From positions 62,001 to 126,000 of the forward strand of contig KV423993.1 in the NCBI GenBank assembly GCA_001632435.1: 64,000 nt of DNA. Direction: 5' to 3'. Source of the stretch: Calocera cornea HHB12733. Lineage: Eukaryota; Basidiomycota; Dacrymycetes; Dacrymycetales; Dacrymycetaceae. The notes below the pieces were generated by a model that was given only the letters and a program-made list of their open reading frames with translations, did no database searches and had not been told where the DNA came from. A program made the position numbers and the translations under genes. Of this stretch, positions 19,547 through 52,649 are shown piece by piece; position 1 is the stretch's first letter; the number at the start of each line of letters is the position of its first letter.

Positions 19547-20074
19547 TCATCCTACTCCTAGTGCGGTATCATGATGTCTTGAAATACAGAGCAGTCCTAA
19601 CAGTACTCAAGGGCAACAGTACTGATTGAATTATCATAGTTCATACAACAGCAGAAGTTTGTTTCAGTGTAATGTGTCCTTTGCAACTGTGGTCCATATC
19701 ACCCCCATATAGACTTGCTTCCAGACCCCCACATCACAGAAGACCAGTAGAATGATATCCATGGCCAGGACAGAGCAGGAGTGCCAGGAAAGGCTTGCTT
19801 GGAGGAGGAGCAGGGAATACTTGTTGCTCCACACCCAGCAGTTACTGGGTAACCTTTATTCATATAATGGATTCTTCCCTACAGATCCCCTTATCACAGA
19901 ACAGTCAATGGTATGCTACTGCTTTGTGGGAATAGGCAGGAGCTTGCTTGAGCAAGGCTTGAAAGTTGGTTTGGTAAGGTCACAGCTTGTGTACCGGAGA
20001 CAAAAATGCTCCAACTCCATCATCTTGCAAAATCTTGGAAGGGACATGTTGAAGCCAAGCGGCTGGAGATGGTA

Positions 20075-22168: not shown

Positions 22169-22286
22169 TACTCCAGCTCCAAGGGGCCCCCTGGTGGCAT
22201 GTGTGGACGCAGCATGCGGGAGTAGAAACTTCCGGAAGCGAAGATAGTCCGTCTGAGGCAAACCGCCAGAGGGTGCCTCTCAACAC

Positions 22287-22759
22287 AAAATATCATCTAG
22301 AATGCCCTGCCCTTTGCCTTCGTCGTCTAGAATGCTCTCAGGGCCGGATTAATCCACAACACCCTTCTGCAAACGCGAAGATATCCACTTTAATCACCTT
22401 TATTTGTGTCCGAAAACATTGCAATCTATTTTGTTCTGTATACATATTGTGTTCACAAAGGTCAGCTGAGATTCCAGACTGTGCAGTGCCCAAAATGACC
22501 CTGGAGCGTCTGAGGAGCAAGACTGCACTATCTCCAGCAATATTTACTGTGCATGTCTTGTTTTGCTGCAGATTCCATTCCAGGGACAAATAATTGAGCT
22601 TGAACAATGTCTTTTACTATTGGTCAGAATGCTGAACCATGGAAACAAAGGGCTTGAAGTGGATATCTCTGAGTTTGGAGAAGGGCATTGTGGAGTAGTC
22701 CAATTCTGAGGGCATTCTAGGCAATGGAGGCAAAGGGGAGGGCATTCTAGATGATAACT
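22287..22759. mobile_element. Fold-back MITE with long inverted repeats
   Basis: 473 bp, flanked by the direct repeat CCTCTCAACAC (22276-22286 and 22760-22770). Terminal inverted repeats of about 70-110 bp share TATCATCTAGAATGCCCT, CTTTGCC, CTAGAATG and GATATCCACTT in the same order. The arm it interrupts is continuous in the 12.6-kb copy (GGTGCCGCTCAACACGG in reverse complement). A duplication of 8-11 bp fits hAT- or MULE-type movement; the superfamily is not settled. Confidence 0.7.
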
Positions 22760-26149: not shown

Positions 26150-26405
26150 TGAGCGGAAGTAATTCTCTCGAGCGGAAGTAACCGGGAACAACGGAGACAA
26201 ACCTTCCCAGTGGAAGCACTTCTCCCAGGCGGAAGTAGCTCGGGTGGCCCGAAATGCCACGAGCGGAGGTGCTCTTGGAGACGGAAGCACTCTTAGAAGG
26301 AGGGATACATTATCGGCAGGTAGAAGGGGAGGCGGAAGCAGACTCCCCCGAGCGGAAGTAAGCTCCTCCTTACGCGGAAGTAAGTACCTTCTTCGGGGGA
26401 AGCAA
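26150..26405 (+). repeat. Cluster of CGGAAG(C/T)A motifs
   Basis: About ten copies of a motif close to GCGGAAGTA or ACGGAAGCA in 250 bp, near 26154, 26173, 26211, 26230, 26264 (variant), 26281, 26331, 26355, 26376 and 26396 (variant), all in the same orientation with spacing of 17-50 bp. The same motif is clustered in the divergent region of the transposon at 46594-46860. Nothing here codes. Confidence 0.75.
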
Positions 26406-28799: not shown

Positions 28800-30010
28800 C
28801 TACAGCAGTGTCTTCTTGAACCACTCCACGGTCTGGTCCGACGAGTCCTCAAACGCCTTCTTCAGTTCTGGTCGGTCCAGCGCGGGGCGGATCGCAAAGC
28901 CGTGCCGCGTGCCAAGGTACTTCTTGAATTCGTAGTCGACCTTGTCGGACCCGGAACGGGCGGCGAGGAGCTGCTCTGCTTCGACGGACTTCTTAGAGGG
29001 GAAAGCAAAGTCCTCTGCAGAGGGACGCATACGGCTGATCAGTGGATGGACCGGAGATTGGGCTAATGCATACCCTCACAGACGACCCAGGAAACAGGAA
29101 ACTTCCAACAAAGCGTATGAGATATGAACGAGACCAGTCACGTTCATGCTACGTACATCCATCTGTGTGACCAGCTTGAGTGGAAAGTCGCCAGGGTGGC
29201 AGATCACGCCGCTCGAGAGGAGGTGGTAAGGTGCCAACTCTGCGATCATTTGGCCTGCGTACGCGTTAGACCCTCTCTCGCGGCGGAGAGTGCTGGATCA
29301 ACCGCCATAGCAGTACCTGGAAGATAGTCAAGCAAATGATTGAATAGGGGAGTCATGAACGCGTACCCCACTGCGCCAACCTTCTCCAGCCCTTTCTCGT
29401 TCTTAAGCGTCACGATGAACTAACAAGACCCTACCTCAGCCATCCCCTATACACAGCCGGAGGAGGCACACATACCGTCTGAAGCCTCTTGCACACCCGC
29501 GAAGGCCAGTTGAAAGTAAGCAGGTTAGGCGCACTCTTGAGGAACTGCCAGCCAAAGCCGAGGTTCTTCCACAAGGGGGGCTTCACGCCCACCTCAAAGT
29601 GGTCGTACGGCTGCAGATCCTCTTCCTTGACCGGCGGCTTTCCCTACGGTGTACGCGCTCAGACCCAGCCTACAGGGCATGAAGCTAATCCAGGGCAGCT
29701 GACCTCAAACATATCCGGCACCTGCATCCCCGTCAGCCAAGTCACAGCGGCACGGGCCCGCATGTTCCGCACGCACATAAACGTCCAGCCCTGCCTCCCT
29801 CGCAAATGCGTCGGCCATGATCTTCGGGTTCTGCAGCGGCAGGCCAAAGATGTCCGTGAACAGCAGGATGGCGTTCTTCGCGGCGGCTGGGGCGCGAGTG
29901 TCGGCGGGGGCCGGGGAGTAGTAGCAGTCCGTGGTGCCTACTTTGATCATCTCACCCTTCGGTGTGCCGGGCAGGCGGTTGCCGGAGACGCAGTCGGCGC
30001 AGAGCTTCAT
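28800..30010 (-). CDS. Dienelactone hydrolase family protein, copy 1
   Basis: Alpha/beta hydrolase of the DLH family, a Cys-Asp-His esterase probably acting on lactones or small esters in the cytosol. Start MKLCADCVSGNRLPGTPKGE at 30010. Conserved strands follow: NAILLFTDIFGLPLQNPKIM, then LDVY^VPDMFE across an intron (29700-29770), and FIVTLKNEKGLEKVGAVG, with the nucleophile motif YCYGG rebuilt across an intron near 29300-29355. The C-terminal half has ICHPGDFPLK, AEDFAFPSKKSVEAEQLL and the catalytic His in GTRHGFAIRPAL, ending TVEWFKKTLL. Several short introns are needed. It is divergent from the aldo-keto reductase (447 bp between starts) and paralogous to the genes at 31836 and 33691. 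Confidence 0.9.
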
Positions 30011-30457
30011 CGTCGCTCCAGAGGGTATCGGTGGGCAGCAGACAGGGGATGGGGGGTATATCGCTGTCGTACAGGATGCAGATGGGCGGTGGGTTGGGCG
30101 GCCTGGCTTGTCGCTGTCACATTCATGAGGGTCCCTCCCTCGGAGCCGAGCGGCACAGATCCGGTCGCTGCACTGGGCGTCAACACCCCGCTAACGCTAA
30201 CCCAACAAGCAGCCTCCTGGCGACGCCCTTGAGAGGGGTCCGAAAGAGTCAGCCAACCCTGCACGTGCCAGTGTTTCTGCGAGATGGGTGCAAGTCAATG
30301 AATACATTCATTCCCCGTCTCCACCTTGGTCGGTCGCACGGTACAAAGCCGGCCCGGACCCTGGTCCGGAATGACGGCGGAACCCACCCCCCCTCCAGCA
30401 ACAAAACCTGCTCGCCTCCCTTGTACTTGACCTGTGCCATCTGCTGCTCATCTTTGA

Positions 30458-31557
30458 ATGCTCGCGAAGATGGCCAAGCTCACGCTCCAGTCCACAGTCA
30501 AGCTCAACTCCGGTGAGCGCCCCCTCCCCTAACGGAACGCTAGCGGCGAGGACTCTGGCTAACAGCAGCTACGCAGGGTTCGAGATGCCCTACATGGGGT
30601 TCGGCGTCTGGGCATCGCCGGGGCACCTCACGCCCCAGTCGTGCATCTACGCGCTCAATGCGGGCTACCGGTGCGCCGCCCATCCTCCTCTCAGCCCCCA
30701 CAGGGATGTGGCATACTGACCCGAGAGCAGACACATCGACACGGCCCAGATGTACAAGAACGAGAGCGAGGTGGGCGACGGTGTGCGCGCATGGTGCGCG
30801 CAGAGCGGCGTCCCGCGGTCCGAGGTGTTCGTGACGACCAAGATGGGCGCTCCGGAGGAGACGCACGAGGCGACGATGGCAGCGCTGCGCGGGAGTGTGG
30901 ATAAGATCAACTTGGGTGTGCATGCTCTTCCCTTGCGAGCAGGACTCGGCACAGGGAGGCGGCTAACGCGGATGCAGACGGGTACGTCGACCTCTTCCTG
31001 ATCCACTCGCCGCGGTCTGGCCCCGCGGGTCGACAGGCATTGTGGAAGGGGATGGAGCAGCTGCTCGCGGAGGGCCGTGCGCGCTCGATCGGGGTGAGCA
31101 ACTACGGACCGACGCAGTTCGAGGAGATGCGGGCGTACGCCAAAGTGTGGCCTGCGGTGAACCAGATCGAGGTGCGTGCTGCGGTCGGGCAGGGGAGCGA
31201 GGACTGATGGATGGGCGTGTGTGGCAGCTGCACCCCTGGTGCCAGCAGCCCGGGGTGGTGGACTACTGCTTCGCGCACGGGATCGCTGTGCAGGCCTACT
31301 GCCCGCTGGTGCGCGGTGAGAAGGCGTCGGACGGTGTGCTGCTCGGGATTGCTGCGAAGCACCACAAGTCGTGGGCGCAGGTGCTGCTTCGGTGGAGCCT
31401 GCAGAAGGGGTTTGTGCCGCTGCCGAAGAGCGACCAGCAGACCCGTATCGAGGCGAACGGGGATGTGTACGACTTTGAGCTGGACGGGGAGGACATGGGT
31501 CAGCTGGACGGGATGGACGAGGGCGCAAAGGGCGCGTTGGTGCGGGTGGCCGAGTAG
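30458..31557 (+). CDS. Aldo-keto reductase
   Basis: NADPH-dependent reductase of aldehydes or ketones, single TIM barrel, cytosolic by family. Two in-frame starts exist, 30458 (MLAKMAKLTL) and 30470 (MAKLTLQSTVKLNSG); the second fits the family better. The catalytic tetrad is visible: Asp and Tyr in GYRHIDTAQMYKNE (Asp49, Tyr54 from the second start), Lys in VFVTTKMG, and His in DLFLIHSPR. Barrel strands continue with RSIGVSNYGPTQFEEM, AVNQIELHPWCQQPGVVDYC, AVQAYCPLVRG and WAQVLLRWSLQKGFVPLPKS. Introns lie near 30512-30575, 30672-30731, 30917-30977 and 31171-31227. It ends LVRVAE and TAG. It sits between dienelactone hydrolase genes, suggesting a shared detoxification or catabolic role. Confidence 0.93.
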
Positions 31558-31776
31558 GCAGGTGCGAGGGGGGTGTACATAGCCGCCGTAGGAATAGGAC
31601 CACTCTGTCCCCCACGAAGGGGTCGTAATGGAGCAGTCCAGGGTGCCCAGGGTGCCCACTCTTGGCCGATGAATGCCGGTCAGGGTCCACACAACCGATG
31701 GATCCATGACGCGCCAACCCGTGGATCGGCCATGGAAGCGCGCCTCAGCGTCCTGCACCGGGCAACAAGGCAGGCT

Positions 31777-31788
31777 CGTTATATACCA
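31777..31788 (+). promoter_or_regulatory. Probable TATA box of DLH copy 2
   Basis: TTATATACCATA about 50-60 bp upstream of the ATG at 31836, in a short leader that turns C-rich before the start. Confidence 0.5.
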
Positions 31789-31835
31789 TATACTCACCAC
31801 ACCCACCGCGTCGCACCCGCCTCCCCTCCCCTCCC

Positions 31836-32793
31836 ATGGCCGCCCCCATCTGCGAGAACTGCACAAAGGGCACAAAGCTCCCCGGAAAGCCCACCGGGAA
31901 CATGGTCAACATCGGCGGCATAGACACCTACGTCGCTCCCCCGCCACGCCCCCTCGCACCCGGCAACGAGCACAAGGCCGTCGTCATATTCACAGACGCA
32001 CTCGGCCTCCCCCTCGGAAACAGCCAGATCATCGCAGATGGATTCGCAAAGGAGCTCAACCTCCCGGTCTACGTCCCGGATATGTTCAACGTGCGCGGCC
32101 CCCCCTCCCTCCCTGCTTTTGTCCGACACACGCTGACGCACTCCCCCTGCAGGGCTCCCCGCCCATCTCCCCCGAGGCAATGTCCTCCGTCGACCACTTC
32201 GAGGTCGGGAAACCCCGGCCCTTCTGGAACAAACTCCGCTTCTACGGCCTCCTCCTCACCATACTCCCAAACATCATCCTGTACAACGCCCCCGGAAAGG
32301 TGGCCGCCCGCATGCAGGGCTGGTGCGACGCACTGCGCAAGGAGAAAGGCGTCGAGCGGCTCGGCGCAGTCGGGCACTGCTATGGCGGCATGGTCATTGT
32401 CAAGCTGGCCGCACTCAGGAGCGGCATCCTCCAGGCGGCCGTCGTCGCTCACCCGGGGAGCATCAAGCAGGAGGAGATTGACAAGGTCGATGTGCGCCCC
32501 CCTCCCCCCTTACCTTCCCTCCCATGCACCCCCGTGCTCACGTCCACCCCCAGTTCCCCTGCGCCTGGGCAACATGCCAGGAAGACCAGTCCTTCCCACA
32601 GCCGTTCGCCAAGCAGGTCGAAAAGTCGTTCCAGGCCCGGGACGACAAGACAAAGGTCCCCTACGAGTTCGTCTACTACCCGGGTACCATGCACGGCTTT
32701 GCCGCTAGGCCTGCCCTCCATGTCCCCGAGATCAGGGAGGCGTTCGAGAAGGTTACGGAGCAGAGCTGGAAGTGGCTCCAGAAGTACCTGTAG
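31836..32793 (+). CDS. Dienelactone hydrolase family protein, copy 2
   Basis: DLH-type alpha/beta hydrolase. Start MAAPICENCTKGTKLPGKP at 31836, then KAVVIFTDALGLPLGNSQII and LPVYVPDMFN. After an intron (about 32090-32152) come GSPPISPEAMSSVDHFEVGK and RLGAVGHCYGGMVIVKLAAL with the Cys nucleophile. After another intron (about 32488-32553) come FPCAWATCQEDQSFPQPFAK and the His motif YPGTMHGFAARPALHVPE. It ends WKWLQKYL and TAG at 32791-32793. About 275 codons, normal for the family. The CEDQ/EED-type position after the second intron may carry the Asp. It is the most diverged of the three local copies. Confidence 0.92.
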
Positions 32794-33590
32794 AGGCTAT
32801 CAGGGCGGGCGGTATACAGTGCTGTTTCCGGTGTCCTTACGACTTTCTTGTTACGGATTCTGGAGTATTCCGTAATGCTAATTACACACCTTCTGAACTC
32901 CTGAGCCCTCCGCGCCCCTCCGCCCAAGTTGCAACCAGTCTGAGCGGTCCTGAGTCGTCTGATATATAGTGATGAGGCGAATAGCTGTGCTGCTGGTCCA
33001 GATCGCAATACTCCGAAGATCCGCGAGTGTGTTGCCCTGCGCAGGAAGCCCCCGCTGCAGCCCACTTGTCAATCACACATGGATCAACAAACCCGATTCG
33101 CTTCTAGCTTGCCATAATGCTAGCCACCTTTCAGCCCACGAGTCAGCCCACTGTGCAGACTGTGTTCCTTCAAACAAAGGCCGCTGCACCCGTTCAGCAT
33201 TCTGCAAGAGATTGCCCGACGGGAACGTGCGCCCGGGCATGAACCACGCCGAACCAATCTCCAGGTCGTCCGCGGTCGTGGACCGCAGGCTCTCAGCCAA
33301 TCACAGTCCTCACCTGCACGCTACCCCACCCGAACACGCTCTCCTCCATCCCCTCAATAGTAACTTCGCCGCCTGGCACCGCCTCGCCGATAGACTCGCT
33401 AGTCCAGGGCAAAGGTGGGATGAAGTAAGCACCGACGTCTGCACGTGCCTTCTGTACGCTCCTGCGTGCCCGGTCCCTGGGCAAACCCCGCAGAGGGCGG
33501 CGTGGAATGGCTGGATGATGGAGCGTCACTGTCAGGGCTTGTGAAGTCACAGACACTGTACTCTTGTGTGAAGCGGGAAGGCGACCTGGT
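32794..33590. other. Intergenic, no gene supported
   Basis: About 800 bp between DLH copies 2 and 3. Overlapping open frames on both strands show no family resemblance. The final 100 bp hold the promoter of copy 3. Confidence 0.4.
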
Positions 33591-33591
33591 A

Positions 33592-33601
33592 GGGTATAAA
33601 A
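33592..33601 (+). promoter_or_regulatory. TATA box of DLH copy 3
   Basis: GGTATAAAAG, close to the eukaryotic consensus, 90-100 bp upstream of the ATG at 33691, followed by a C-rich leader. Confidence 0.65.
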
Positions 33602-33690
33602 GACCTACCCTGCAACAACGTCCCGCACGACCTCGTCCCCTCGACTGCGCCAGGCACCACCCCACCACAGCCAGAAGCACAGCCAACACG

Positions 33691-35426
33691 ATGAAACTCT
33701 GCCCGGACTGCATCTCCGGCGTCGTCCTCCCCGGCACTCCCGGGGGAAAGATGGTCAAGATCGGTGCGATCGACGTCTACCTCGCCTCCCCGCCTCCCGA
33801 GGCGCGTGCGAAGGCGGCGGACAAGAGTGCGGTTGTGCTGTTCACAGACGTGTTCGGGCTACCGCTAGGGAACCCAAAGGTCATGGCAGATTCGTTCGCG
33901 AAGGAGCTTGGGCTGGACGTATGGGTGCCGGATATGTTCAACGTGTGTCCCTCTTGTCCACCAGCTCTCGTCCTCGAGGAATGACGCTGACGCGGGATGC
34001 AGGGCAAGCCCCCGATCAAGAACGAAGACATCATGCCGTATGACCACCAGGATCTCGGCAGCCCGTGGCCATGGTGGAAGTTCGCCGGCTTCATATGGAA
34101 CATGGCATGGACGGCTCCAAGCATGTTCATCGGGTCCAACTCGCAAAAGAAGGTGTTTGCAAGGATGAGGGTAGTAAGTCTGTCCGCGGCTATGATACTA
34201 CAAGGGCTGACCGGTTGGCAGTTCGTAGAGACGCTCAAGAAGGAGAAGGGGATTCAGAAGGTCGGCGCTGTGGGGTGAGTGCAGATGCATGCGCATATAG
34301 CCGCCCCCTTTCCAGAAGCTGAGACGAACACAGATACTGCTATGGCGGAGCTGCCATCCTCTCCCTCATCCCGTACCACGTCCTCGCGAGCGCGGTGATC
34401 TGCCACCCAGGCGGGTTCGACCCGAAGCAGGTAGACCACATCGACGTGCGCCCCTTCTTGCAACTTGCTCTTCGCGCATATACTGACCTTCCTACAGTTC
34501 CCCACGTCCTGGGTGACCTGCGAAGAAGACTTCGTGATGGGACCCAAGCTCGCCGATGCCGCCGAAGCGCAGTTCGCGGCTCGTGCGGCGCGTGCCAAGC
34601 AAGCAGACGAGCCCGTGCCGCCAGCGTACGAGTTCCGGCGGTACATGGGCACGCGGCATGGGTTTGCGTGCCGTCCTGCNNNNNNNNNNNNNNNNNNNNN
34701 NNNNNNNNNNNNNNNNNNNNNNNNNNNNNNNNNNNNNNNNNNNNNNNNNNNNNNNNNNNNNNNNNNNNNNNNNNNNNNNNNNNNNNNNNNNNNNNNNNNN
34801 NNNNNNNNNNNNNNNNNNNNNNNNNNNNNNNNNNNNNNNNNNNNNNNNNNNNNNNNNNNNNNNNNNNNNNNNNNNNNNNNNNNNNNNNNNNNNNNNNNNN
34901 NNNNNNNNNNNNNNNNNNNNNNNNNNNNNNNNNNNNNNNNNNNNNNNNNNNNNNNNNNNNNNNNNNNNNNNNNNNNNNNNNNNNNNNNNNNNNNNNNNNN
35001 NNNNNNNNNNNNNNNNNNNNNNNNNNNNNNNNNNNNNNNNNNNNNNNNNNNNNNNNNNNNNNNNNNNNNNNNNNNNNNNNNNNNNNNNNNNNNNNNNNNN
35101 NNNNNNNNNNNNNNNNNNNNNNNNNNNNNNNNNNNNNNNNNNNNNNNNNNNNNNNNNNNNNNNNNNNNNNNNNNNNNNNNNNNNNNNNNNNNNNNNNNNN
35201 NNNNNNNNNNNNNNNNNNNNNNNNNNNNNNNNNNNNNNNNNNNNNNNNNNNNNNNNNNNNNNNNNNNNNNNNNNNNNNNNNNNNNNNNNNNNNNNNNNNN
35301 NNNNNNNNNNNNNNNNNNNNNNNNNNNNNNNNNNNNNNNNNNNNNNNNNNNNNNNNNNNNNNNNNNNNNNNNNNNNNNNNNNNNNNNNNGCAGACGACGG
35401 AGTGGTTCAAGAAGACGCTGCTGTAG
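33691..35426 (+). CDS. Dienelactone hydrolase family protein, copy 3 (contains assembly gap)
   Basis: Start MKLCPDCISGVVLPGTPGGK at 33691, very like copy 1. It continues SAVVLFTDVFGLPLGNPKVM, LDVWVPDMFN, intron, GKPPIKNEDIMPYDHQDLGS, FVETLKKEKGIQKVGAVG, intron, YCYGGAAILSLIPYH (Cys nucleophile near 34340), ICHPGGFDPKQVDHID, intron, FPTSWVTCEEDFVMGPKLAD and RRYMGTRHGFACRP with the catalytic His. The sequence then enters 710 N and resumes as TTEWFKKTLL and TAG. Copy 1 has only about 16 residues between those points, so roughly 50-65 bp of coding sequence should be missing, not 710. Confidence 0.88.
34680..35389. other. Assembly gap (710 N)
   Basis: Run of N inside the last exon of DLH copy 3. 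Its length is an estimate and may be wrong. Confidence 0.99.
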
Positions 35427-43066: not shown

Positions 43067-43267
43067 TGGGTGTTTCCCTTTTCGGCCTTGGGCACGAGTT
43101 TGACAAACGACAGTGTTCTCGGATTCGTTGGAAACAAGTTCTTGGAGGCACCCACCGAGGAGGAATGATTCGGTTACCTGTGATGGCTTTGTTATTGGTT
43201 GATTCTACCTTCACGACTGATGTTCTATTATGATTGCGCGATTCCTAACGATGCCTTCCTATTCACG

Positions 43268-43351
43268 GAGACCATCCAGGGTCCCCGACACGGAATCCGG
43301 AAATCGAATTCCGGATTCCGGATTCCGTGGGGGCTGTGCTACTTTGCTCCC
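43268..43351 (+). repeat. Left terminal inverted repeat of the KDZ-like element
   Basis: About 84 bp. After the terminal 20 bp comes an internally palindromic run built of GGAATCCGGAA/TTCCGGATTCC units, then CCGTGGGGGCTGTG. Just inside lie two reverse CGGAAGCAAA motifs (TTTTTGCTTCCGGG near 43356, TATTTGCTTCCGC near 43375). Confidence 0.9.
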
Positions 43352-43667
43352 GCTTTTTTGCTTCCGGGATAGGTATTTGCTTCCGCTTATTAGTCACGTG
43401 ATGTCATGTGACATCTGTTCGCCCGTATGTGGTAGAATAATCAAGTCAAAGCAAATAAATACATTTCACTTTGTAGCTACTCTCCAGGCAGTTGAGGTAC
43501 CACAGGGATATCCAAAGGGCTTTTCTGCACACAGCTTTTATTGCAAATTACTAACTATGTAGGAGCCTCTTTCCGCACTATGCGTTACCTAAGTAGCTAG
43601 TTTTTTTTTGGGGGGGTTTTCGGGGTTATCAATGACAGAACAATAGAAGCAATTTGAAAGAAATCTT

Positions 43668-46485
43668 CTACACATCACCAGGGACAGAAAGCCATTTGGG
43701 GTCAACTGGGCGCAGGGGGGGACGAATGTCATACGGGCCGCTTGAAGGAATGTTGAGGCCGATCTTGAGGATCCGGTAGTTGGCATCCACGGGATTGGGG
43801 TGCAACTCATACACCGAGTTCTCGCCATCCGTAAACCTGAAGACCGCCCTTCCCTTGCACTTGTGGCGGCAGGTAAAGTGCCAAGCGCCCTCCAGTGTCT
43901 TCTTCTTGTACTGCATCAGCATTCCACACTTCGGGCAGTTCAGGTCGTTCTCGTTGCCGGTCAAGTTCTTCGACGGGGCACCCCATGTGTACCGGAACCC
44001 AGCCCCGCGTGCACCGAAAACAAAGATGTCGAGACCAAAAGTGGGCGTTGACAACTCATTGGTATACCCCTTCAGGACAGCTTTCTCCTGGGGCAAGTGG
44101 TCCCGATAGAATGCCCGCAGGAAGGGGGCCAGCCAGATCTCTGCCACACGCTGGGAGTTGAAGACCTTTGCCGTGAAGCTGATGACCGTATTGAAACCAA
44201 CACTAGAAGTAGTCAATATAGGTACAGGTACAGAATGTAAAGATACATACGTGCATGCCATAACCGAGGGCAACGCCTTCAACACCATACCGCTGCATGT
44301 CAGCAGAATAAGGGTCGATTCCTCGCAGGCATTCTTTGGGACAACTTCTCCAGCAATGGCAGTGCAAACCTGTCAGAAAGAATTAGACTACTTTCAGAGT
44401 GCTATGGATGAGTACTTACTTGAAGGGGGGTCCCAAATTTGTGGTATGTATCGCCCTTATTGTACAGGAGCTTGCCGTCGTGGTCATTAGAGTGAACGTC
44501 GACGACCATGAGGAAATGAAATTTCTTCTTGTAGCTGTAAGGTAGTGTTAGTAAACCAAGATAGTCCAGGAGCAAGAACACTTACTGGTAAGTCATCTTG
44601 CGCACCAGTTCCGCTATATGAACTTGGATGCTTCGGGTTCCTTTGGCCTGTACCGGGTTGCTCTGGTCCGACGACCACGTTGCACAATCATCCTCGAGCA
44701 CCACATCCACCCAATGGGCACGATGAGCCTATTTAGAAGTCAGCAATTGTTCCCAAGCAGAGAGAGAAACTTACCACTTTACGAGACCTGTACGTCTCAC
44801 CCAGATACCCCTTCACGATCCTGGAAGAGAGGTCCGACATGCTGTGCATGTCTTTCTCCTGCCAGTGCACCATCACGACGATGATCGGTTCAGCATGGAC
44901 TGAACCTTGAGACCATTGGGTGAGGTTCCCAAGATAATTGTACTATTAAAACTCAGTGCAATGCCTTCTTCATGTCATGAACTACTCACGGGCGGCTTCG
45001 ACATCTTGTCATCCTTACAGCATTTGACGCATTTGATGCCCTCTGGAGTATCCACGGTTGCCCTCGTCACATCAGCACATCCAGGTCCACCTGCAGTCGT
45101 GATGCAAAAGGCACGGCCACAGGTGTTGCAATCAGCCAGAGCGCTGGACTCAAAGCTACCACGGCAGACAGAACAATGCTACATTGAAGTTAGCATCTAC
45201 CAAGAGCAATGTGTGAGAAGACTTACAGTCAGCTTCCTGTACCGCGCATGAGGGGCTCCCAGCGCCGCCATCAAGTTACAGGCAGTTTCAGCCTTTGTGG
45301 TCCCCTTGGACACCCCATTCCCAACCTTCCCATCCGCCCAGAGATAGTCCCTGTCCATCTGCATGACACGCTTGGCTTGCTCCGGGCGATCTCTGGGGGC
45401 CACCTCCTTGTTTCTCTGCCAATACTTGTAGATGAGGGCAGGAGCACTTCCCCTAATGAAGAGTAAGTGAAGAACATGAACAATTTCTACAAACGCTTAC
45501 TCCATGGAATCGTGCGTCTGCACCCAATAACGCCACAGACCAGAAGCCGATTCAGGAGAGCCNNNNNNNNNNNNNNNNNNNNNNNNNNNNNNNNNNNNNN
45601 NNNNNNNNNNNNNNNNNNNNNNNNNNNNNNNNNNNNNNNNNNNNNNNNNNNNNNNNNNNNNNNNNNNNNNNNNNNNNNNNNNNNNNNNNNNNNNNNNNNN
45701 NNNNNNNNNNNNNNNNNNNNNNNNNNNNNNNNNNNNNNNNNNNNNNNNNNNNNNNNNNNNNNNNNNNNNNNNNNNNNNNNNNNNNNNNNNNNNNNNNNNN
45801 NNNNNNNNNNNNNNNNNNNNNNNNNNNNNNNNNNNNNNNNNNNNNNNNNNNNNNNNNNNNNNNNNNNNNNNNNNNNNNNNNNNNNNNNNNNNNNNNNNNN
45901 NNNNNNNNNNNNNNNNNNNNNNNNNNNNNNNNNNNNNNNNNNNNNNNNNNNNNNNNNNNNNNNNNNNNNNNNNNNNNNNNNNNNNNNNNNNNNNNNNNNN
46001 NNNNNNNNNNNNNNNNNNNNNNNNNNNNNNNNNNNNNNNNNNNNNNNNNNNNNNNNNNNNNNNNNNNNNNNNNNNNNNNNNNNNNNNNNNNNNNNNNNNN
46101 NNNNNNNNNNNNNNNNNNNNNNNNNNNNNNNNNNNNNNNNNNNNNNNNNNNNNNNNNNNNNNNNNNNNNNNNNNNNNNNNNNNNNNNNNNNNNNNNNNNN
46201 NNNNNNNNNNNNNNNNNNNNNNNNNNNNNNNNNNNNNNNNNNNNNNNNNNNNNNNNNNNNNNNNNNNNNNNNNNNNNNNNNNNNNNNNNNNNNNNNNNNN
46301 NNNNNNNNNNNNNNNNNNNNNNNNNNNNNNNNGTCTGCCTTCTTGGTGTACTCCTCCGGGGTTGAGATATCGTCCGACTTGGACAGATCCCTCGGGGGGA
46401 GGGGGATGGCAGTATTGTCGGCCGCACGTCCCCTGAGGCCTCGAGTGCCGCGCTGACCACGTTGACCACGAGTTCTGGGAGGCAT
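43668..46485 (-). CDS. Cys-rich KDZ-element accessory protein, function unknown (assembly gap inside)
   Basis: Minus-strand start MPPRTRGQRGQRGTRGLRGR at 46485, a Gly/Arg-rich N-terminus, then a 770-N gap. Beyond it come SASGLWRYWVQTHDSME, intron, VAPRDRPEQAKRVMQMDRDY, NLMAALGAPHARYRKLT, intron, then a RING/PHD-like ligand set CSVCRGS...CNTCGRAFCITTAGG...CADVT...CVKCC (45178-45010). Further exons read IIVVMVHWQEKDMHSMSDLS, DVVLEDDCATWSSDQ, FHFLMVVDVHSNDHDGKLLY then NKGDTYHKFGTPLQ, VFNSQRVAEIWLAPFLRAFY, and a second zinc-ribbon-like set CPKCGMLM...FTCRHKCKGRAVF near 43920. It ends SVPGDV and TAG. About nine introns. I do not recognise a named enzyme; proteins of this general look occur in mushroom transposons, from memory only. 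Confidence 0.7.
45563..46332. other. Assembly gap (770 N)
   Basis: Run of N inside the Cys-rich accessory gene of the transposon, removing part of its N-terminal half. Confidence 0.99.
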
Positions 46486-46593
46486 ATTTGAGTTCAGAAG
46501 AGTACAGTGAAAGTCGATTGTTGAAGTCTTGATAATGGTCGTTTGCTGGCAAAGGTATTGCTGCCTCGAGGCACGGACCAGGGGCTATGTGAA

Positions 46594-46860
46594 ACGGAAG
46601 CAGAACCTCGTCACGGAAGCAGATTGCCCAATGAACGGACGTAAATCTTGCACTCGGATGCAACTTACCCTTTGGGCGGAAGCATATTTTGAGTTGCGCG
46701 GAAGTAAACAATTTGGTAGACGGAAGCAGATTGGTAATCCAGCGGAAGCATAATTGGGTGAACGGAAGTAAATGTCACGTGCACGGAAGCAAATAGTCAC
46801 GTGCACGGAAGCAGAATTGCTCCCTGAACGCGGCGCGCGACGCGCGCCGGAAGCAAACAA
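46594..46860 (+). repeat. CGGAAG(C/T)A motif array in the divergent region of the transposon
   Basis: Ten exact CGGAAG cores at about 46595, 46614, 46677, 46699, 46721, 46743, 46763, 46783, 46806 and 46848, plus two variants, nearly all followed by CA or TA and an AT-rich spacer. Spacing near 20-23 bp (about two helical turns) is common from 46677 to 46806. Two GTCACGTGCACGGAAGC repeats contain a CACGTG E-box. All are in one orientation, just upstream of the minus-strand gene start at 46485. Confidence 0.85.
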
Positions 46861-46907
46861 CTCTCTCTCTCTCCCACCACCATCCCTGTTGCGCGCTCGC
46901 AACAGGG
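46831..46907. repeat. Two perfect hairpins beside the motif array
   Basis: CGGCGCGCG-A-CGCGCGCCG at 46831-46849 (9-bp arms) and CCCTGTTGCG-CGCT-CGCAACAGGG at 46884-46907 (10-bp arms). A CT dinucleotide tract (46861-46873) lies between them. Confidence 0.85.
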
Positions 46908-46982
46908 TTATAGTAAGTTTTTTTTTACTAATTAATTTTCTTAGATAATTGGACACTTCGGGCCCCTCCTCAGGGCGAGCAT

Positions 46983-47395
46983 GGCTTGTCCATCTCGTCT
47001 GCGAGGTGGGGCTGGAGGATGTGGAAGAGCGCATGGCTTGTCCGTCGCTCCTCCACTCCTCATACTGTATGGGTCTTCGTGGGGCGCGCATGGCTTGTCC
47101 GTCGCGCCCTTTTCTGCCATCATATATGCGTGCAGGGCTTGTCCCTCGCGCATATATGAATCTCTGTAAGCATGTTTGGGCGTTGGGGGGCGCGGTGGCA
47201 GGACATGCATGGCTTGTCCGTCATGTCTTTGCCACCAGCCGGATGAATGGGGAGCGCAGGGCCTGTCCCTCGTAACCCTGCAGTCCTTCCCAGCGCCTAT
47301 CTCACTCCCCCTGCCCCGCACACACATGGCATGTCCGTTGTGGGCGGTGAGCAGGGGTTTGGACTATGACTTGGTGCAGGGCCTGTCCCTCACCG
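46983..47395 (+). repeat. Eight iterons GGCTTGTCCGTC / GGCCTGTCCCTC
   Basis: Copies begin near 46983, 47034, 47092, 47136, 47211, 47260, 47328 and 47380, spaced 44-75 bp, all in one orientation and nearly all preceded by GCAT or GCAG. Two versions occur: ATGGCTTGTCCGTC and AGGGCYTGTCCCTC. The spacers differ in sequence, so this is an iteron set, not a plain tandem repeat. It lies in the non-coding region between the divergent genes. Confidence 0.85.
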
Positions 47396-47484
47396 AGTCA
47401 TGGGCCAAGTGAGATCTCCCCTAGGGAGCTGAGCCCGCCGACGCCGCCCCAGGAGCTCCTCCTCCCCGACGTCTCCCCTCTTTC

Positions 47485-47631
47485 CCTCGGTATCTTTCGA
47501 TACCGAGGCTGCTTTGGTGTCATGATGCCTCCGACGGGGAGGATCATGACACCGTCGCCCACTGCAGCTTCCCCAGGAGGGGAAGCAGGTAAGCTGACGA
47601 GGAGCGGGCGTCTTGTCGCCCCTCCTCGTCA
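47485..47631. repeat. Run of four hairpins in the divergent region
   Basis: 47485-47508: CCTCGGTATC, loop TTTC, GATACCGAGG. 47516-47553: GGTGTCATGATGCCTCC with a near-perfect partner (one bulged base). 47567-47586: GCTTCCCC, loop AGGA, GGGGAAGC. 47595-47631: TGACGAGGAG pairs with CTCCTCGTCA around a 17-nt loop. Four stems in 147 bp is far beyond chance. They lie about 300 bp upstream of the plus-strand gene start. Confidence 0.85.
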
Positions 47632-47933
47632 TTTAGTATATTTATTTTAGAAACTAGATACATTGTAACACGGGACGCGGCCCCCTCCGCTCTTAAAAAA
47701 TAATAATAAGTTAATATTTTGATTTATATATTTATCTTGTTACTCAGGGACGCCAACCAAATGAAGGCGTACAGGTTGCCTTTTAAGGCAATGCTCATTC
47801 ATCGGACCCGAAACGGGGGATCCGAGTCTCCATCATCAAAATGTTTTTCGCCAGGTCCTTCAGGTGGTTACCATTTCTCAACACCCTTCTTTCCTTCCTC
47901 CCCACTACCTTCTCAACTTCTTTCAGCCCTACG

Positions 47934-49728
47934 ATGTCTTCTTCTTCTCAACATATCGATGTCGACTTTGTTCTTGGCCTCTACCAAGCTGGAGAACGCC
48001 CTGCTCTATTCACACCTCACTGTGGGGTGTGTAACAAGGCGCTCCCACTCGAAGTATGCAGAGACACGGCTGGCCACAAGCCTTCCAACTTTGGCCGGAT
48101 TATGGGCAGAGTATGTGGTCAAACACTTCATTGTTCTCACTCTAACTCAATAACAGTGCAAACCCCATATCAACTTCTGGGATCCCGCCCAACCCAACAA
48201 AAAGGGATTCATCTGGCTCACAGATACCCCTCCCAGTACGGTGCAGACACTGCTCCGGGAGGCGTTCAACGCCAATGGCACGAGGCAGCCTAGCCCTACA
48301 ACAAATGGTACTCAAGTGGCAGGAACCGCTGGGGGCGGGAAATGTCCTGAGACCAACTGTAAGGCACGGAGGAAGCAGGGCTGCTACTTTGGCTCCTGCA
48401 AAGTCCACTGCCAAGCTAAGCAGCACCTCCTTGGAGTTATCTGCGAGGTGCAGAGGCATCCTATCAGCAGGGTTGCTCCTCAAGAACCTTCCTCAGCAAT
48501 CGAGACGCCCCCTCTCCTCGACAGAAGACCTCAGACTCCTGTGCTGGCTCTGACTCAGCCTGAAACCACATGCCAAGTTCTACCTCCTCGACCCACTCAG
48601 GCATTCTATGGCCCATCGAGTCTTGGTACACGTGTAGACGACCCGGGCTATCTGGGCCTCTCAGGTCACACAACTCCTGTTCGACAGGAACAACGTCGAC
48701 AAGAAGAAGAAGAGGCACGCAGTGAGAGGGAGCGGCTTGCACGTCGCTTCTCAGTTGTGGGAATAGAGAAGGCAAGACATCCGGTTGCTTTGATGCTGCC
48801 TAAGGAAGAACTGACCACCCTATAGGATGACAGCACGCGCCACGAGGGTATCGAAGGCACCCTCTGTCCAAAGGGACTCACGACTTCAGTCAGCAAATGG
48901 CCGACCTACGTGCAGAAGATCCTTGCCAGCGAGTACCCAGGGAGGGACTATCTTGAGGTCTTCATCCTCTCCGCAGGGCGATGGGCCACCTATCAGCACG
49001 ACGCCTCCATGGAGATCAAGCGTGAAGATGTGATATTTTTCCGGCATGGTGGGGTTGTCAAAAACCATCCTGCGGTTGCATCAGCAATGGCAGAGCACAG
49101 CCCAGTAGCCCTTCCACAGGATCTTCGCCGAGGAGCTTCGTTCAACACTCCCACCCCACAGAGGACTACTACAGCAGTGCCTGAGAGCCCATGTTCCCCC
49201 TTGGAAGAAACATCTGGAGACATGTGGGCCGCAGCACAGGAGAAAAAGCGCAAGAACAGGACGAGCACTAGTGGAAGTGAGCCGGAGTTACTCGCACCCG
49301 TGGTGTCAGCCTCCAATGTCACTCTGGACAAGCAGGCAGCCTCTACCTTACAGCCCGGGCCGGGCTCCTCGAAACCATCCCTAAAGAAGCCGCGTGGCCG
49401 CCCAGCAAACTGGCCTAACACGCGCACCTTCAACCAGGTCAAGCGGGAGATAGATGAGGTCACAAGGATGGTTGAGATGAGACATACATTGGCTGCTGCC
49501 CAGGCTGCGGTGATAGGACATACCATCCCCTCAACCACCTGGACTGACAACTTGCGCTGGCTCCATGTAGCTGACCCCAGTACTCGAGAGACATATGCTA
49601 CCAAGAAAGGGGAGCAGTCCTGGACTGGGTTCCGGCTGTTGGCCAAGCTCGATCAGGAAAGGGCTCGTCAAGAAAGAGCAGCCCAGGAAGCTGTGGCTCA
49701 GGGGGAAGATAGCAAACCGTCCTTGTAA
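47934..49728 (+). CDS. Transposon-encoded protein with GRF-like zinc motif, function unknown
   Basis: Start MSSSSQHIDVDFVLGLYQAG at 47934; an in-frame ATG at 47841 would add 31 residues (MFFARSFRWLPF). The N-terminus has FTPHCGVCNKALP...SNFGRIMGR joined by an intron (48111-48156) to CKPHINFWDPAQPNKKGFIW, giving a C-x2-C...NFGR...C-x-H-x-NFW pattern reminiscent of GRF zinc fingers. A second set CPETNCKARRKQGCYFGSCK then VHC follows near 48346. After an intron ending at 48825 (probably from about 48753) come STRHEGIEGTLCPKGLTTSV, WPTYVQKILASEYPGRDYLE and REDVIFFRHGGVVKNHPAVA. A basic AT-hook-like KKPRGRPANWP lies near 49387, then a coiled C-terminus rich in Ala, Gln and Glu, and TAA at 49726-49728. 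Zinc and AT-hook motifs suggest DNA binding. No family name is certain. Confidence 0.72.
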
Positions 49729-49786
49729 TGTGGGGTAACCCTTCTGTATATCAAGTATATACCTATTGAATACTAGAAACCACCAC

Positions 49787-51900
49787 TCATTGTAAGAGCA
49801 GACGTCTATCAATGAGGTAAGGTCCCTGTCTGTTCCGCCGCAACTCATCAACAAGGAAGCGATTGCATGCTTTAATGACCTCGTCTAAGAAGAACTCATA
49901 CCTTACAGGGAGCATCTCTCGCACAATCCCATGGAAATTGTTCAGCCAGGCATTGGCCTGCTCGCATGCCGAGGAGTTGAAGGTCCAGCGCTCGGTTTCC
50001 GGATTGTAGAGTTGAGGGAATGCCATTGGATTGCAGTGGGTTGTGCAATACACATCTTTTGTAGAGTGATGATTCTTGAAATGAAACACGTCAACAACAA
50101 GGGCTGTTTTGCTGAAGTGTTGCTGGATAGGTCCACGGCCAGCAAGGTATTGGTGGAGCCGGCAGTTGTTGTCATAGAATAACACGTCGGGCATCGATTT
50201 CTGGGTGGGAAATACACCACGGAGAAACTCCTAACCCCAATATGAGTAAACTCATGTTTAACCTCTTTGGGGGGGACTTACAGCAACTGATGAAAGAGAT
50301 TCGGCGCCATAAAAGGTTCCTCGGGCAATGATAATTCCACATGGCCTTACTACCAGTTGCTCATTGTGGGTGCTTCTTCTTCCAAACCTTGCTTTGAGGT
50401 CATTGTCGGTCTTGCGTGCTCGTCGTGGGCCACTTGGGAGGCCAAGGTCTGGAGTATCTCCTTCTCGGGAGTATGATCTTGCTCGATCTAGTCGATCTCG
50501 CAGGAGGAGCGCTGATTGGCCGGCTGCATAGTAGTTTTCTTCTAACTGACGATGTTTAGAAGATGAGCAGGTCTTGTGACCGGGCTCAACAGGGGCTTGA
50601 CAGCTTTCCACAGAACAAAGGGTTTCCATAGTGGAGTGGGGTAGACAGTATCGTGTGCGATTGGTAGAGAGCGGGTTTGTGCAGTTGTGCACTGCACAAC
50701 AAGGGCGGCCAATGGCTACCCCATCCGTTACAGCGCAAGAGAGCATGTCTGCCAAGTATGTTCAGTAGATAGAGGGGTAGTGTTTTGGGATAGTACTGAC
50801 ATTGTTCTCCTTCTCTATCAAAGAACTTTCGACACCCCTGGCACGAATGAGCCCATTGTTCCTGACCATTTGCGGCCATGAAGTGATTCCGCGTCAACAT
50901 GGCTGCCATGAGTCTCTCACTCTGGCTTCCTGCAGAGTCAGGGAGAGCAAGCTGGGTGCCTTGTTCAGAGTGATGGAGGAGGAGGGAGTACAAGTCGAAC
51001 AGGTCTGAGATATATTCACTGCGCAGGAGAGGAGGAGAGTAGCTGCCAGTGTTGAAAATATGATTGTTGGCCAACGTGTTGTGGTAGAACTGGGCCGTTG
51101 CACTTGCTGAAGCACTGTGTAAGTGTTAGCAAATGAAGTATCATAGAGAATTCAGTCCTTACTGGGAGAGGACTGTATAAGACCGAAAGACTTGGCAAAG
51201 CTTCTCCTCAAAGAAGAGGTGCTTCTCCGACTGAAGAACTGTTGGCATACCTTGATAGTAAAGTCGATACCAAGTCTGGTTGGGACCTTGCTGCCGGGCA
51301 TAATTGATGTAGTATCGGGTGTTGCAAGAGCGGCATTTGAGGGATGTTGTTGAAATGGGGTAAGCACCATTGTTGAGAGTGTACAATGCTGCAATGTAGC
51401 GCTGTGGATCATACAGAGGCGCTTGTTGGCTGGTGTCAATGAAGTGCGGGCAGTGAAGATTGGTGCAGGTTCGATTGGGGGGGTAGAATTCTTCAGCCGC
51501 TGGGAAGAAGTCTGTAAGTATATTCTTTATAGCTGGATGCATCCTTACCAAGCTCTGTGAGATGAGCGTAAGTTTGGAATGGAGTGAAGTCATCGAGAAG
51601 AGGTGCAGTGACCCCGGTAGCATCCCTTGCAGGGTTCCAGAGGACATGGCGCATGACCCCCCATAGCGCCAAGATCTGCGTATCTTGCAAGCCAATAGCA
51701 TGGCTCAGGAAAGAAACGACAGTATGGGGGAGGGTTGGCGGGGAAACATCTACCAGGGAGAGAGTACGGTCTTCTTGCCATGCAATTCTGGTCTGGAGAC
51801 GGCGGGCTAGGCCCAGGAAGGAAAGCAGCTGTTCAACAGAGACACCAGAAAGGTCCTGTTGAAGGAGAAGAAGCTGATTGAGAAGCTCATATAGCTGCAT
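49787..51900 (-). CDS. CxC5/CxC6 KDZ transposase-like protein
   Basis: Minus-strand start MQLYELLNQLLLLQQDLSGV at 51900. After HVLWNPARDATGV...LTELG and an intron comes the CxC5-like module: YPPNRTCTNLHCPHF...LKCRSCNTRYYINY and RLYYQGMPTVLQSEKHLFFE (51490-51190). Further exons give GSYSPPLLRSEYISDLFDLY, QEQWAHSCQGCRKFFDREGE, then a CxC6-like module CCAVHNCTNPLSTNRTRYCL...CSVESCQAPVEPGHKTC (50720-50545). The catalytic RNase H-like end reads PDVLFYDNNCRLHQYLAG, LVVDVFHFKNHHSTKDVYC, CNPMAFPQLYNPETERW, then FNSSACEQANAWLNNFHGIV (Glu in CEQAN) and MLPVRYEFFLDEVIK. It ends RRLLLQ with TGA at 49787-49789. Candidate acidic residues are Asp in YDNN, Asp in VVDVFHF and Glu in ACEQAN. No in-frame stop is seen, so it may be functional. 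Confidence 0.8.
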
Positions 51901-52043
51901 GGTCGCTGGACAAAGGTATGAGGCACTGGGAAGAATAATGTCAATTATCGCGATGATACATTCAACACGCGATTTCCGCGTGTAGAAGCACAACAATCAC
52001 GTGCAGCGGAATGTATTTGTATTTAAATCTTAATTAAGTCCGC

Positions 52044-52124
52044 GGGGGCAAACTACACAGCCCCCACGGAATCCGGAATCCGGAATTCATTCCGGATTCC
52101 GTGTCCGGGAACCCGGATGTACTG
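52044..52124 (-). repeat. Right terminal inverted repeat of the KDZ-like element
   Basis: 81 bp matching the left repeat in reverse complement over the CACGGAATCCGGAA and TTCCGGATTCC blocks and CCGTGGGGGCTGTG, with a 2-bp length difference in the palindromic core and a few substitutions. Confidence 0.9.
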
Positions 52125-52649
52125 TATTCACGAGATCATTGCGATAAGTTACCGGGGATGCCCGATTCATTATATCATAACCTTCGATGTGCATATATCG
52201 GATGATGATGTACAGACTGCCGTTGCCCTTCAATTCCTCCGGTCAGGTTTGTATGCCTTACATATCTCACCTTGTCCAAAGGCTGTCAAGTAGATACATA
52301 CGCGGAGAGGAGTCACCTGGGTCACGTGCTCGGACGCAATTGGGTACGCGCAGATGGCGGCTTGCCCGGCCGGTCACTCACATCTCAACGACTCTCCTCG
52401 CTGCATAAGGACCTTCAGGCACGATTCGAGGTGACGAGCTGGTGTGAGCTCGGCAAGCGGGCCTGTCGCGGCTCAACAATACGTACGAAGAAGAGACAAC
52501 CGCACCGAGAGTCGTGCTTGATTCAAGGCCGGGAACTCTCACCCCTGGGCGCTTCGCAACTCTCCTGAGTCGGTGCCTCATTAGGGTCTTTACGGTGGTC
52601 TCCTGTCTCCGGCAAGGGCTTGTCTTCATCCCCTTCCACATCTTGCAAC

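What the first reader, a model, noticed from the sequence alone, without database searches (positions are those of the whole stretch)
43268..52124. Complete 8.86-kb KDZ-like transposon with three genes, defined to the base
The sequence shows an 8-bp direct repeat (TATTCACG) touching ~84-bp inverted termini that align gap-free for their first 24 bp, enclosing three genes. One gene has CxC5- and CxC6-like Cys clusters, known companions of KDZ transposases. The other two genes have zinc-binding-like motifs and no clear name. The preserved duplication and open frames suggest recent movement. A three-gene KDZ element with its own large control region may be undescribed.
Basis: partly seen in the sequence, partly recalled or inferred. 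Interest (0 to 1): 0.88.

Follow-up and report, generated by a model that had tools for sequence, protein, structure and literature searches.

The report
Three-gene jelly-fungus transposon with RNA hairpins
This is a recently mobile, multi-copy jumping gene of the jelly fungus Calocera cornea that seems to carry its own unusual cut-and-paste enzyme, two companion genes of unknown function and a row of eight conserved RNA hairpins; it suggests that a widespread mushroom gene regarded as a companion of transposases is itself a transposase.

Summary
Window 43268-52124 is one insertion of a multi-copy DNA transposon of Calocera cornea (Dacrymycetes, not Agaricomycetes). Eight left and seven right ends in the assembly start at the same base; pairing their flanks gives exact 8-bp target duplications for 4 insertions and 7 of 8 bases for 2 more. 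The window copy is not complete as read: 770 Ns lie inside gene 1.

It has CxC5 and CxC6, a sub-threshold KDZ match, a predicted RNase H/DDE fold (best aligned: ISCth4 transposase, retroviral integrases, TnsB) and a D-D-E triad identical in 31 of 31 aligned relatives. In the model CxC6 sits inside the catalytic fold. Ends beginning CAGTAC recur at homology boundaries in three divergent CxC5/CxC6 lineages.

Genes 1 and 2 are under purifying selection and match no Pfam family. The control region holds eight RNA hairpins with a near-identical tip (bulged C, loop CNUGU), covarying stems and strand bias, kept in three subfamilies; no Rfam family matches. The subfamilies are mosaics whose crossover falls inside this array. 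KDZ membership stays suggestive; hairpin function is inferred only.

The parts
43260..43267 (.). left target-site duplication TATTCACG
   Evidence: exact copy at 52125-52132; 8 bp confirmed on further insertions
43268..43352 (+). left terminal inverted repeat, starts GAGACCATCC; contains an internal palindrome
   Evidence: same first base in 8 of 8 left ends
43668..46485 (-). gene 1: 771-aa protein (read whole in the C222 copy), 11 exons, Cys-rich clusters; no Pfam family
   Evidence: exons mapped from C222; identical to CALCODRAFT_488309; no Pfam family at E <= 1
45563..46332 (.). assembly gap (770 N) inside gene 1; 757 bp in the C222 and C52 copies
46595..46855 (+). cluster of CGGAAGCA/CGGAAGTA boxes between the divergent genes 1 and 2 (putative two-way promoter)
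   Evidence: such boxes also cluster at the single-copy site 26154-26375
46972..47001 (+). RNA hairpin 1 of 8 (bulged C, loop CNUGU)
47024..47053 (+). RNA hairpin 2
47081..47110 (+). RNA hairpin 3
47125..47154 (+). RNA hairpin 4
47200..47229 (+). RNA hairpin 5
47249..47278 (+). RNA hairpin 6 (weaker outer stem here, well paired in subfamily C); missed by the pairing scan, found by tip pattern and model
47317..47346 (+). RNA hairpin 7
47369..47398 (+). RNA hairpin 8
47934..49728 (+). gene 2: 559-aa protein, exons 47934-48110, 48157-48756, 48826-49728; N-terminal Cys clusters, sub-threshold AT-hook; no Pfam family
   Evidence: only a sub-threshold AT-hook; distant relative convergent with a gene 3 relative on C238
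49787..51900 (-). gene 3: putative transposase, 637 aa, exons 51900-51549, 51499-51163, 51114-50801, 50748-50282, 50230-49787
   Evidence: CxC5 1.1e-29, CxC6 1.2e-25, KDZ 0.015
51072..51549 (-). CxC5 zinc domain of gene 3 (residues 118-244, over introns; coordinates worked out by hand)
50537..50731 (-). CxC6 zinc domain (residues 341-405; coordinates worked out by hand), in the model placed within the catalytic fold and including the putative first catalytic Asp
50723..50725 (-). codon of D343, putative first catalytic residue
   Evidence: D in 31 of 31
50171..50173 (-). codon of D510, putative second catalytic residue
   Evidence: D in 31 of 31
49961..49963 (-). codon of E580, putative third catalytic residue
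   Evidence: E in 31 of 31
52042..52124 (-). right terminal inverted repeat, reads CAGTACATCC inwards
   Evidence: same first base in 7 of 7 right ends; CAGTAC shared with two other lineages
52125..52132 (.). right target-site duplication TATTCACG

Best explanation
The element is an autonomous cut-and-paste DNA transposon of a CxC5/CxC6 transposase lineage that resembles KDZ. Gene 3 encodes an RNase H-fold DDE transposase: its D343-D510-E580 triad cuts at the GAGACC and CAGTAC ends and joins them to target DNA with an 8-bp stagger; CxC5, and perhaps CxC6, which in the model lies after the first strand of the catalytic fold, binds the ends. Shown: ends, 8-bp duplications, copies, conserved triad, purifying selection on the three genes, covarying hairpin array. 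Predicted: the fold and hence the catalytic role. Inferred: end binding by the zinc domains; genes 1 and 2 as accessory DNA- or RNA-binding proteins needed for movement or for evading the host; a two-way promoter (CGGAAGYA boxes) for genes 1 and 2; and eight copies of one RNA hairpin in the leader of gene 2 that an element-encoded zinc-cluster protein binds to limit its own expression. A left module (end, gene 1, promoter) and a right module (gene 2, gene 3, end) have been exchanged between subfamilies, with the crossover in the hairpin array.
Against: The KDZ profile match is below its cut-off (15.4 and 16.1 bits against 26.6), and 7 of 31 relatives match it at E up to 1. Profile comparison with the genome's own KDZ transposases put D407, the H/C motif and E477 in register but scored 18.0, within the range of 20 column shuffles, 13.0-23.7. 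Foldseek alone gave no PDB hit at E <= 0.001, best 0.17. A profile search of PDB sequences gave GDAP1 at 0.0024, probably chance in a helical stretch. The fold is predicted, on a relative; no coordinates were superposed on a solved active site. No transcription, excision or empty site was seen. Hairpins: most of those counted were found by a scan that required pairing, although the tip pattern alone with one mismatch marks all eight, plus one site elsewhere in the window; the number of pairs with a change on both sides (9 of 12) is reached by 111 of 500 shuffles. Gene 3 of the C52 copy has one in-frame stop.
Confidence: 0.82

Rival explanations
1. The CxC5/CxC6 protein is an accessory DNA-binding factor and the element is moved in trans by a classical KDZ transposase of the same genome.
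For: The Pfam names call CxC5 and CxC6 'associated with KDZ transposases'; the genome holds classical KDZ domains (51 matching stretches, exon by exon); PMC7641404 (passages) found no KDZ gene joined to the CxC5/CxC6 genes of Pleurotus.
Against: Gene 3 itself has the predicted DDE fold and an invariant triad; all 7 right ends found have gene 3 beside them; CAGTAC ends go with CxC5/CxC6 genes in lineages with different neighbours.
Confidence: 0.1
2. Gene 1, not gene 3, is the catalytic protein, and gene 3 is regulatory.
For: Gene 1 is conserved, large and of no Pfam family; relatives in a second Dacrymycete genus.
Against: Another CxC5/CxC6 lineage has the same CAGTAC end with a different neighbouring open frame and no gene 1 match in the part its contigs hold; gene 1 relatives were found in Dacrymycetes only, gene 3 relatives widely. 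The gene 1 model failed, so its fold is simply unknown.
Confidence: 0.05
3. The hairpin array acts in DNA (single-stranded or extruded hairpins bound by the transposase, or a recombination hotspot) and not in RNA.
For: The subfamily crossover lies inside the array; palindromes also occur in the terminal repeats.
Against: Strand bias: 34 G-T against 2 A-C cells, which fits one strand only; the array lies mid-element, 3.7 kb from the nearest end.
Confidence: 0.25
4. Gene 1 contains a caspase-like (CHAT) peptidase domain.
For: Motif impression by eye only: DVHSN and LLTCSG kept in gene 1 of subfamilies A, B and C, on C295 and in Dacryopinax P0002.
Against: No Pfam hit up to E 10 on the isolated piece; a genome search with the CHAT family up to E 10 gave 11 matches, none at a gene 1 locus; hhalign against CHAT proteins of the same genome gave probability 0.3%; no usable model.
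Confidence: 0.07

Closest known systems
CxC5/CxC6 gene insert in the MSH4 gene of the sporeless oyster mushroom (PMC7641404; passages read)
   Same: multi-copy mobile fragment (6,792 bp) whose large ORF carries CxC5 and CxC6
   Different: the authors found no KDZ transposon near it and suspected a Copia retrotransposon; the passages read describe no further genes, ends or duplications; here the CxC5/CxC6 protein itself looks like the transposase
KDZ superfamily (Kyakuja, Dileera, Zisupton); PMC12730594, one section and passages read
   Same: 8-bp target duplications as in Zisupton and Dileera; TIRs as in Zisupton; Cys-cluster protein (association recalled and from Pfam names)
   Different: KDZ domain only sub-threshold; CxC6 placed within the predicted catalytic fold; no TET/JBP hit; two other accessory genes; hairpin array. 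Kyakuja there has 7-bp duplications and no TIRs
ISCth4 (recalled as IS256 family), retroviral integrases, TnsB
   Same: predicted fold and DDE layout
   Different: no sequence match in the PDB sequence search; a zinc domain after the first strand here

Membership tests
Cut-and-paste DNA transposon | terminal inverted repeats touching a target-site duplication of constant length | tested here: met
   8 left and 7 right ends; 4 exact and 2 near-exact 8-bp duplications among 56 pairings
Cut-and-paste DNA transposon | several near-identical copies at unrelated sites | tested here: met
   subfamily A copies C222, C124, C179 99.1-99.7% identical to the window
DDE transposases | RNase H fold with D, D, E triad | tested here: met
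   by prediction only; triad in 31 of 31
DDE transposases | catalysis by the triad | not testable with these tools
   needs biochemistry
CxC5/CxC6 proteins (PF18718, PF18721) | profile matches above the curated cut-off | tested here: met
   103.4 and 90.0 bits against 26.9 and 27.5
KDZ superfamily (PF18758) | KDZ transposase domain above the curated cut-off | tested here: not met
   15.4 bits against 26.6; 7 of 31 relatives at E <= 1, best 0.0061; so not filed as a member, only as KDZ-like
KDZ superfamily (PF18758) | profile-profile similarity to true KDZ transposases | tested here: inconclusive
   motifs in register but score within shuffles
Zisupton/Dileera | 8-bp target duplication | tested here: met
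   length for those groups from PMC12730594
TET/JBP-carrying elements | TET/JBP dioxygenase gene inside | tested here: not met
   Pfam at E <= 1 gave only CxC5, CxC6, KDZ and a weak AT-hook in the three proteins
known structured RNA family | Rfam match of the hairpins | tested here: not met
   no match at E <= 1 in 43268-52124

The most novel reading that the evidence does not exclude
CxC5/CxC6 proteins found across mushroom-forming fungi are a distinct transposase lineage with a zinc domain built into the catalytic core and CAGTAC ends, and the Dacrymycete branch has evolved an RNA-based control: eight copies of one RNA operator in the leader of gene 2, bound by an element-encoded zinc-cluster protein, which also serve as the joint at which gene modules are swapped between elements.
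Probability: 0.3. Interest if true: 0.85.

Novelty: new variant of a known kind. Interest (0 to 1): 0.7.

Why it matters
CxC5/CxC6 regions occur in high copy number in oyster mushroom (44, and nearly 60 in the sporeless strain, complete or truncated; PMC7641404, passages), and one such insert interrupts MSH4 in the commercial sporeless variety, yet no transposase was assigned to them there. If the CxC5/CxC6 protein is the transposase, that open question becomes testable with two defined ends and three residues. The hairpin array would be an unusual RNA control element in a eukaryotic DNA transposon, and the mosaic subfamilies show such elements trading gene modules.

Tried and rejected
CHAT/caspase reading of gene 1: not supported; one of the seven CHAT rows (L068) was read in a wrong frame, which weakens that profile slightly. 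Gene 2 relatives in the protein database: none at E <= 0.001 among the 7998 candidates scored. Empty site: the flanks occur once in the own assembly. CGGAAGYA as a transposase-binding site: not held, since such boxes also cluster at a single-copy site. PDB sequence hit to GDAP1: judged chance. PDB sequences with gene 1: nothing better than E 1.7. Only Pfam was scanned, not NCBIfam, PHROGs or PADLOC. A short stretch on C61 similar to the termini was not examined.

Rows dropped: two of 33 relatives (P0013, P0036) were left out of the alignment used for the triad count; in the 33-row alignment the first Asp is invariant and the other two are at 90% or more, P0036 lacking that end. Of the 24 hairpins of the window, C52 and C95, C1 (identical to A1) and the B hairpin at L038 1911-1940 were left out and the poorly paired A6 kept: 22 of 24. 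Background for the hairpin scan: 0 hits in 107,580 bases with at least 8 outer pairs, whereas the array was scanned at 6; at 8 or more, 6 of the 8 window hairpins pass. Gene 2 of subfamily C (C7) was incomplete and not counted for dN/dS. CAGTAC end: of seven further loci fetched, C7/C234 show a homology boundary at CAGTAC and C142 has the same end with another flank; C5 has CAGTAC without a second copy to prove a boundary; C17, C90 and C1 showed no CAGTAC in the stretch fetched.

Papers: the listings showed none on these elements in Dacrymycetes or on such hairpins; listings were judged by title and abstract start, and most subscription papers are not held. Iyer et al. 2014, which named CxC5/CxC6, is not held and is recalled only.
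Full report
Identity of the host. A hand-spliced model of gene 1 from the sibling copy on contig C222 (39,421 bp) is identical over 771 aa to CALCODRAFT_488309 of Calocera cornea HHB12733, on a contig of the same length; gene 3 relatives P0004 and P0005 sit on contigs of the lengths of C179 and C52. The window is therefore from a Dacrymycete.

The insertion. TATTCACG occurs at 43260-43267 and 52125-52132, touching inverted termini. In the same assembly 8 left ends (window, C222, C218, C52, C122, C199, C48, C200) and 7 right ends (window, C179, C124, C95, C129, C52, C7) begin at the same base, with unrelated flanks. Many copies are cut by contig ends, so I compared all 56 left-right flank pairs: exact 8-bp duplications for the window, C222/C179 (GACGGGCG), C199/C7 (CGCGGGAC) and C48/C95 (CACCGATT); 7 of 8 for C52 (both ends on one contig) and C122/C129; no exact duplication of 5-7 or 9-11 bp and no 8-mer match at the other offsets tested. 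Each cross-contig pair joins ends of the same subfamily. C218, C124 and C200 stay unpaired, so there are at least eight insertions, probably nine; the tool says its counts are lower bounds. The left tip GAGACC and right tip CAGTAC differ from each other but not between the copies compared.

Correction to 'complete'. 770 of 8,857 bases are N (45563-46332), inside gene 1. The stretch is 757 bp in C222 and C52. Whether gene 1 of the window copy is open cannot be told. Gene 1 is open in C222, C52 and C200, gene 2 in the window and C95, gene 3 in the window, C179, C95 and C7, with one in-frame stop in C52. The projected introns keep GT-AG in the copies compared.

A shared end. In a second CxC5/CxC6 lineage the copies on C52 (1-5243), C89 and C230 stop being alike within 2-6 bp after ...GTGTACTG, i.e. 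CAGTACACCC read inwards, next to the start of the gene. In a third, C7 and C234 become identical exactly at CAGTACGCCC, and C142 has the same end with another flank. The window family has CAGTACATCC. The second lineage has a convergent 674-codon open frame where gene 2 would be; C238 has a gene 2 relative convergent with a gene 3 relative. So the transposase gene and its end stay together while the cargo differs. The left ends of these lineages were not reached.

Genes 1 and 2. Neither has a Pfam match above cut-off (pieces). Gene 1: three proteins in the database, one of them the gene itself and two from Dacryopinax, plus paralogues at about 46% on C295 and C279. Gene 2: none in the database, distant ones in the genome. 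dN/dS is 0.22 for gene 1 (A-B; 0.42, bootstrap 0.27-0.66, for the close pair A-C), 0.24 for gene 2 (A-B), 0.11 and 0.08 for gene 3 (A-B, A-C) (Nei-Gojobori, own script). The three genes are thus kept by selection. The gene 1 model failed (pLDDT 31.7).

Mosaic subfamilies. For gene 1, dS is 0.047 between A and C but 1.48 between A and B; for gene 3 it is 1.3 between A and C but 0.32 between A and B. Identity in 250-bp steps shows A like C at 93-100% up to about 47.0 kb (86% in the first step, which holds the TIR), 86% in 47018-47267 and 70% or less in the next steps; A like B is 61% in 46518-46767, 72% and 84% in the next two, then 81-92% to the right end. The switch lies inside the hairpin array. 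Parts of C52 from 48.0 to 49.5 kb are gap or badly aligned there.

The hairpin array. Between the divergent genes 1 and 2 lies first a cluster of CGGAAGYA boxes (46595-46855), also seen at a single-copy site elsewhere in the window, then eight hairpins at 46972-47398 on the strand of gene 2. Each has an outer stem of its own sequence, a bulged C, a 4-bp upper stem A-[U.G, G-C or U-A]-G-G and a five-base loop, CNUGU in 23 of the 24 hairpins of the window, C52 and C95. The fold of 46925-47665 has z -13.0 on this strand and -9.2 on the other. In 22 distinct hairpins from three subfamilies 97.0% of 264 cells pair (shuffles 70.1%) and 72 cells change on both sides (shuffles 20.1), while the number of pairs with such a change, 9 of 12, is not unusual (111 of 500 shuffles); sliding the partner by 1-3 columns lowers pairing to 40-57%. 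There are 34 G-T and 2 A-C cells, so the structure fits one strand. A covariance model finds 8 in the window and 8 in each of C52, C200 and C95, mostly the sequences it was built from or near copies, and nothing convincing elsewhere in the 17 loci searched (one match at E 0.98) or in the window. The exact tip 14-mer occurs 9 times in the genome, all in these elements. No Rfam family matches. An RNA operator bound by an element protein is my preferred reading (about 0.35 on its own); no transcript or binding data exist.

Literature. PMC7641404 (passages) describes a 6,792-bp insert with a CxC5/CxC6 ORF in oyster mushroom MSH4, found no KDZ transposon with it, and suspected a Copia element. PMC12730594 (outline, one section, passages) gives 8-bp duplications for Zisupton and for a Dileera element, and 7 bp without TIRs for two Kyakuja families. 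PMC12062965 (passages) reports the proposal that a CxC7 domain recognises DNA or chromatin proteins.

Noticed in passing
26154-26375: Cluster of CGGAAGTA/CGGAAGCA boxes in single-copy sequence, like the one between genes 1 and 2; perhaps a common promoter motif of this fungus.
   Followed up: partly
28800-35426: Inverted pair of similar dienelactone-hydrolase-like stretches (several inverted arms, 71-89%), one broken by a 710-N gap at 34680-35389; the family name is by eye.
   Followed up: no
20072-22171: 28-nt inverted repeats (93%) with about 2.0 kb between them, perhaps another small transposon.
   Followed up: no
22291-22756: 110-nt inverted arms (80%) with 246 nt between, a possible MITE or hairpin element.
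   Followed up: no
L069 1-5243, L070, L071: Second CxC5/CxC6 transposon lineage with the same CAGTAC end and a different convergent open frame of 674 codons.
   Followed up: partly
L073 (C212) and C167, C104, C47: Four copies of a distant gene 2 relative (25% identity); in the C212 stretch fetched no gene 3 relative was found, so gene 2 may ride in another element family.
   Followed up: partly
47477-47640: Further strong hairpins of other sequence just downstream of the array, towards gene 2 (seen in the fold).
   Followed up: no
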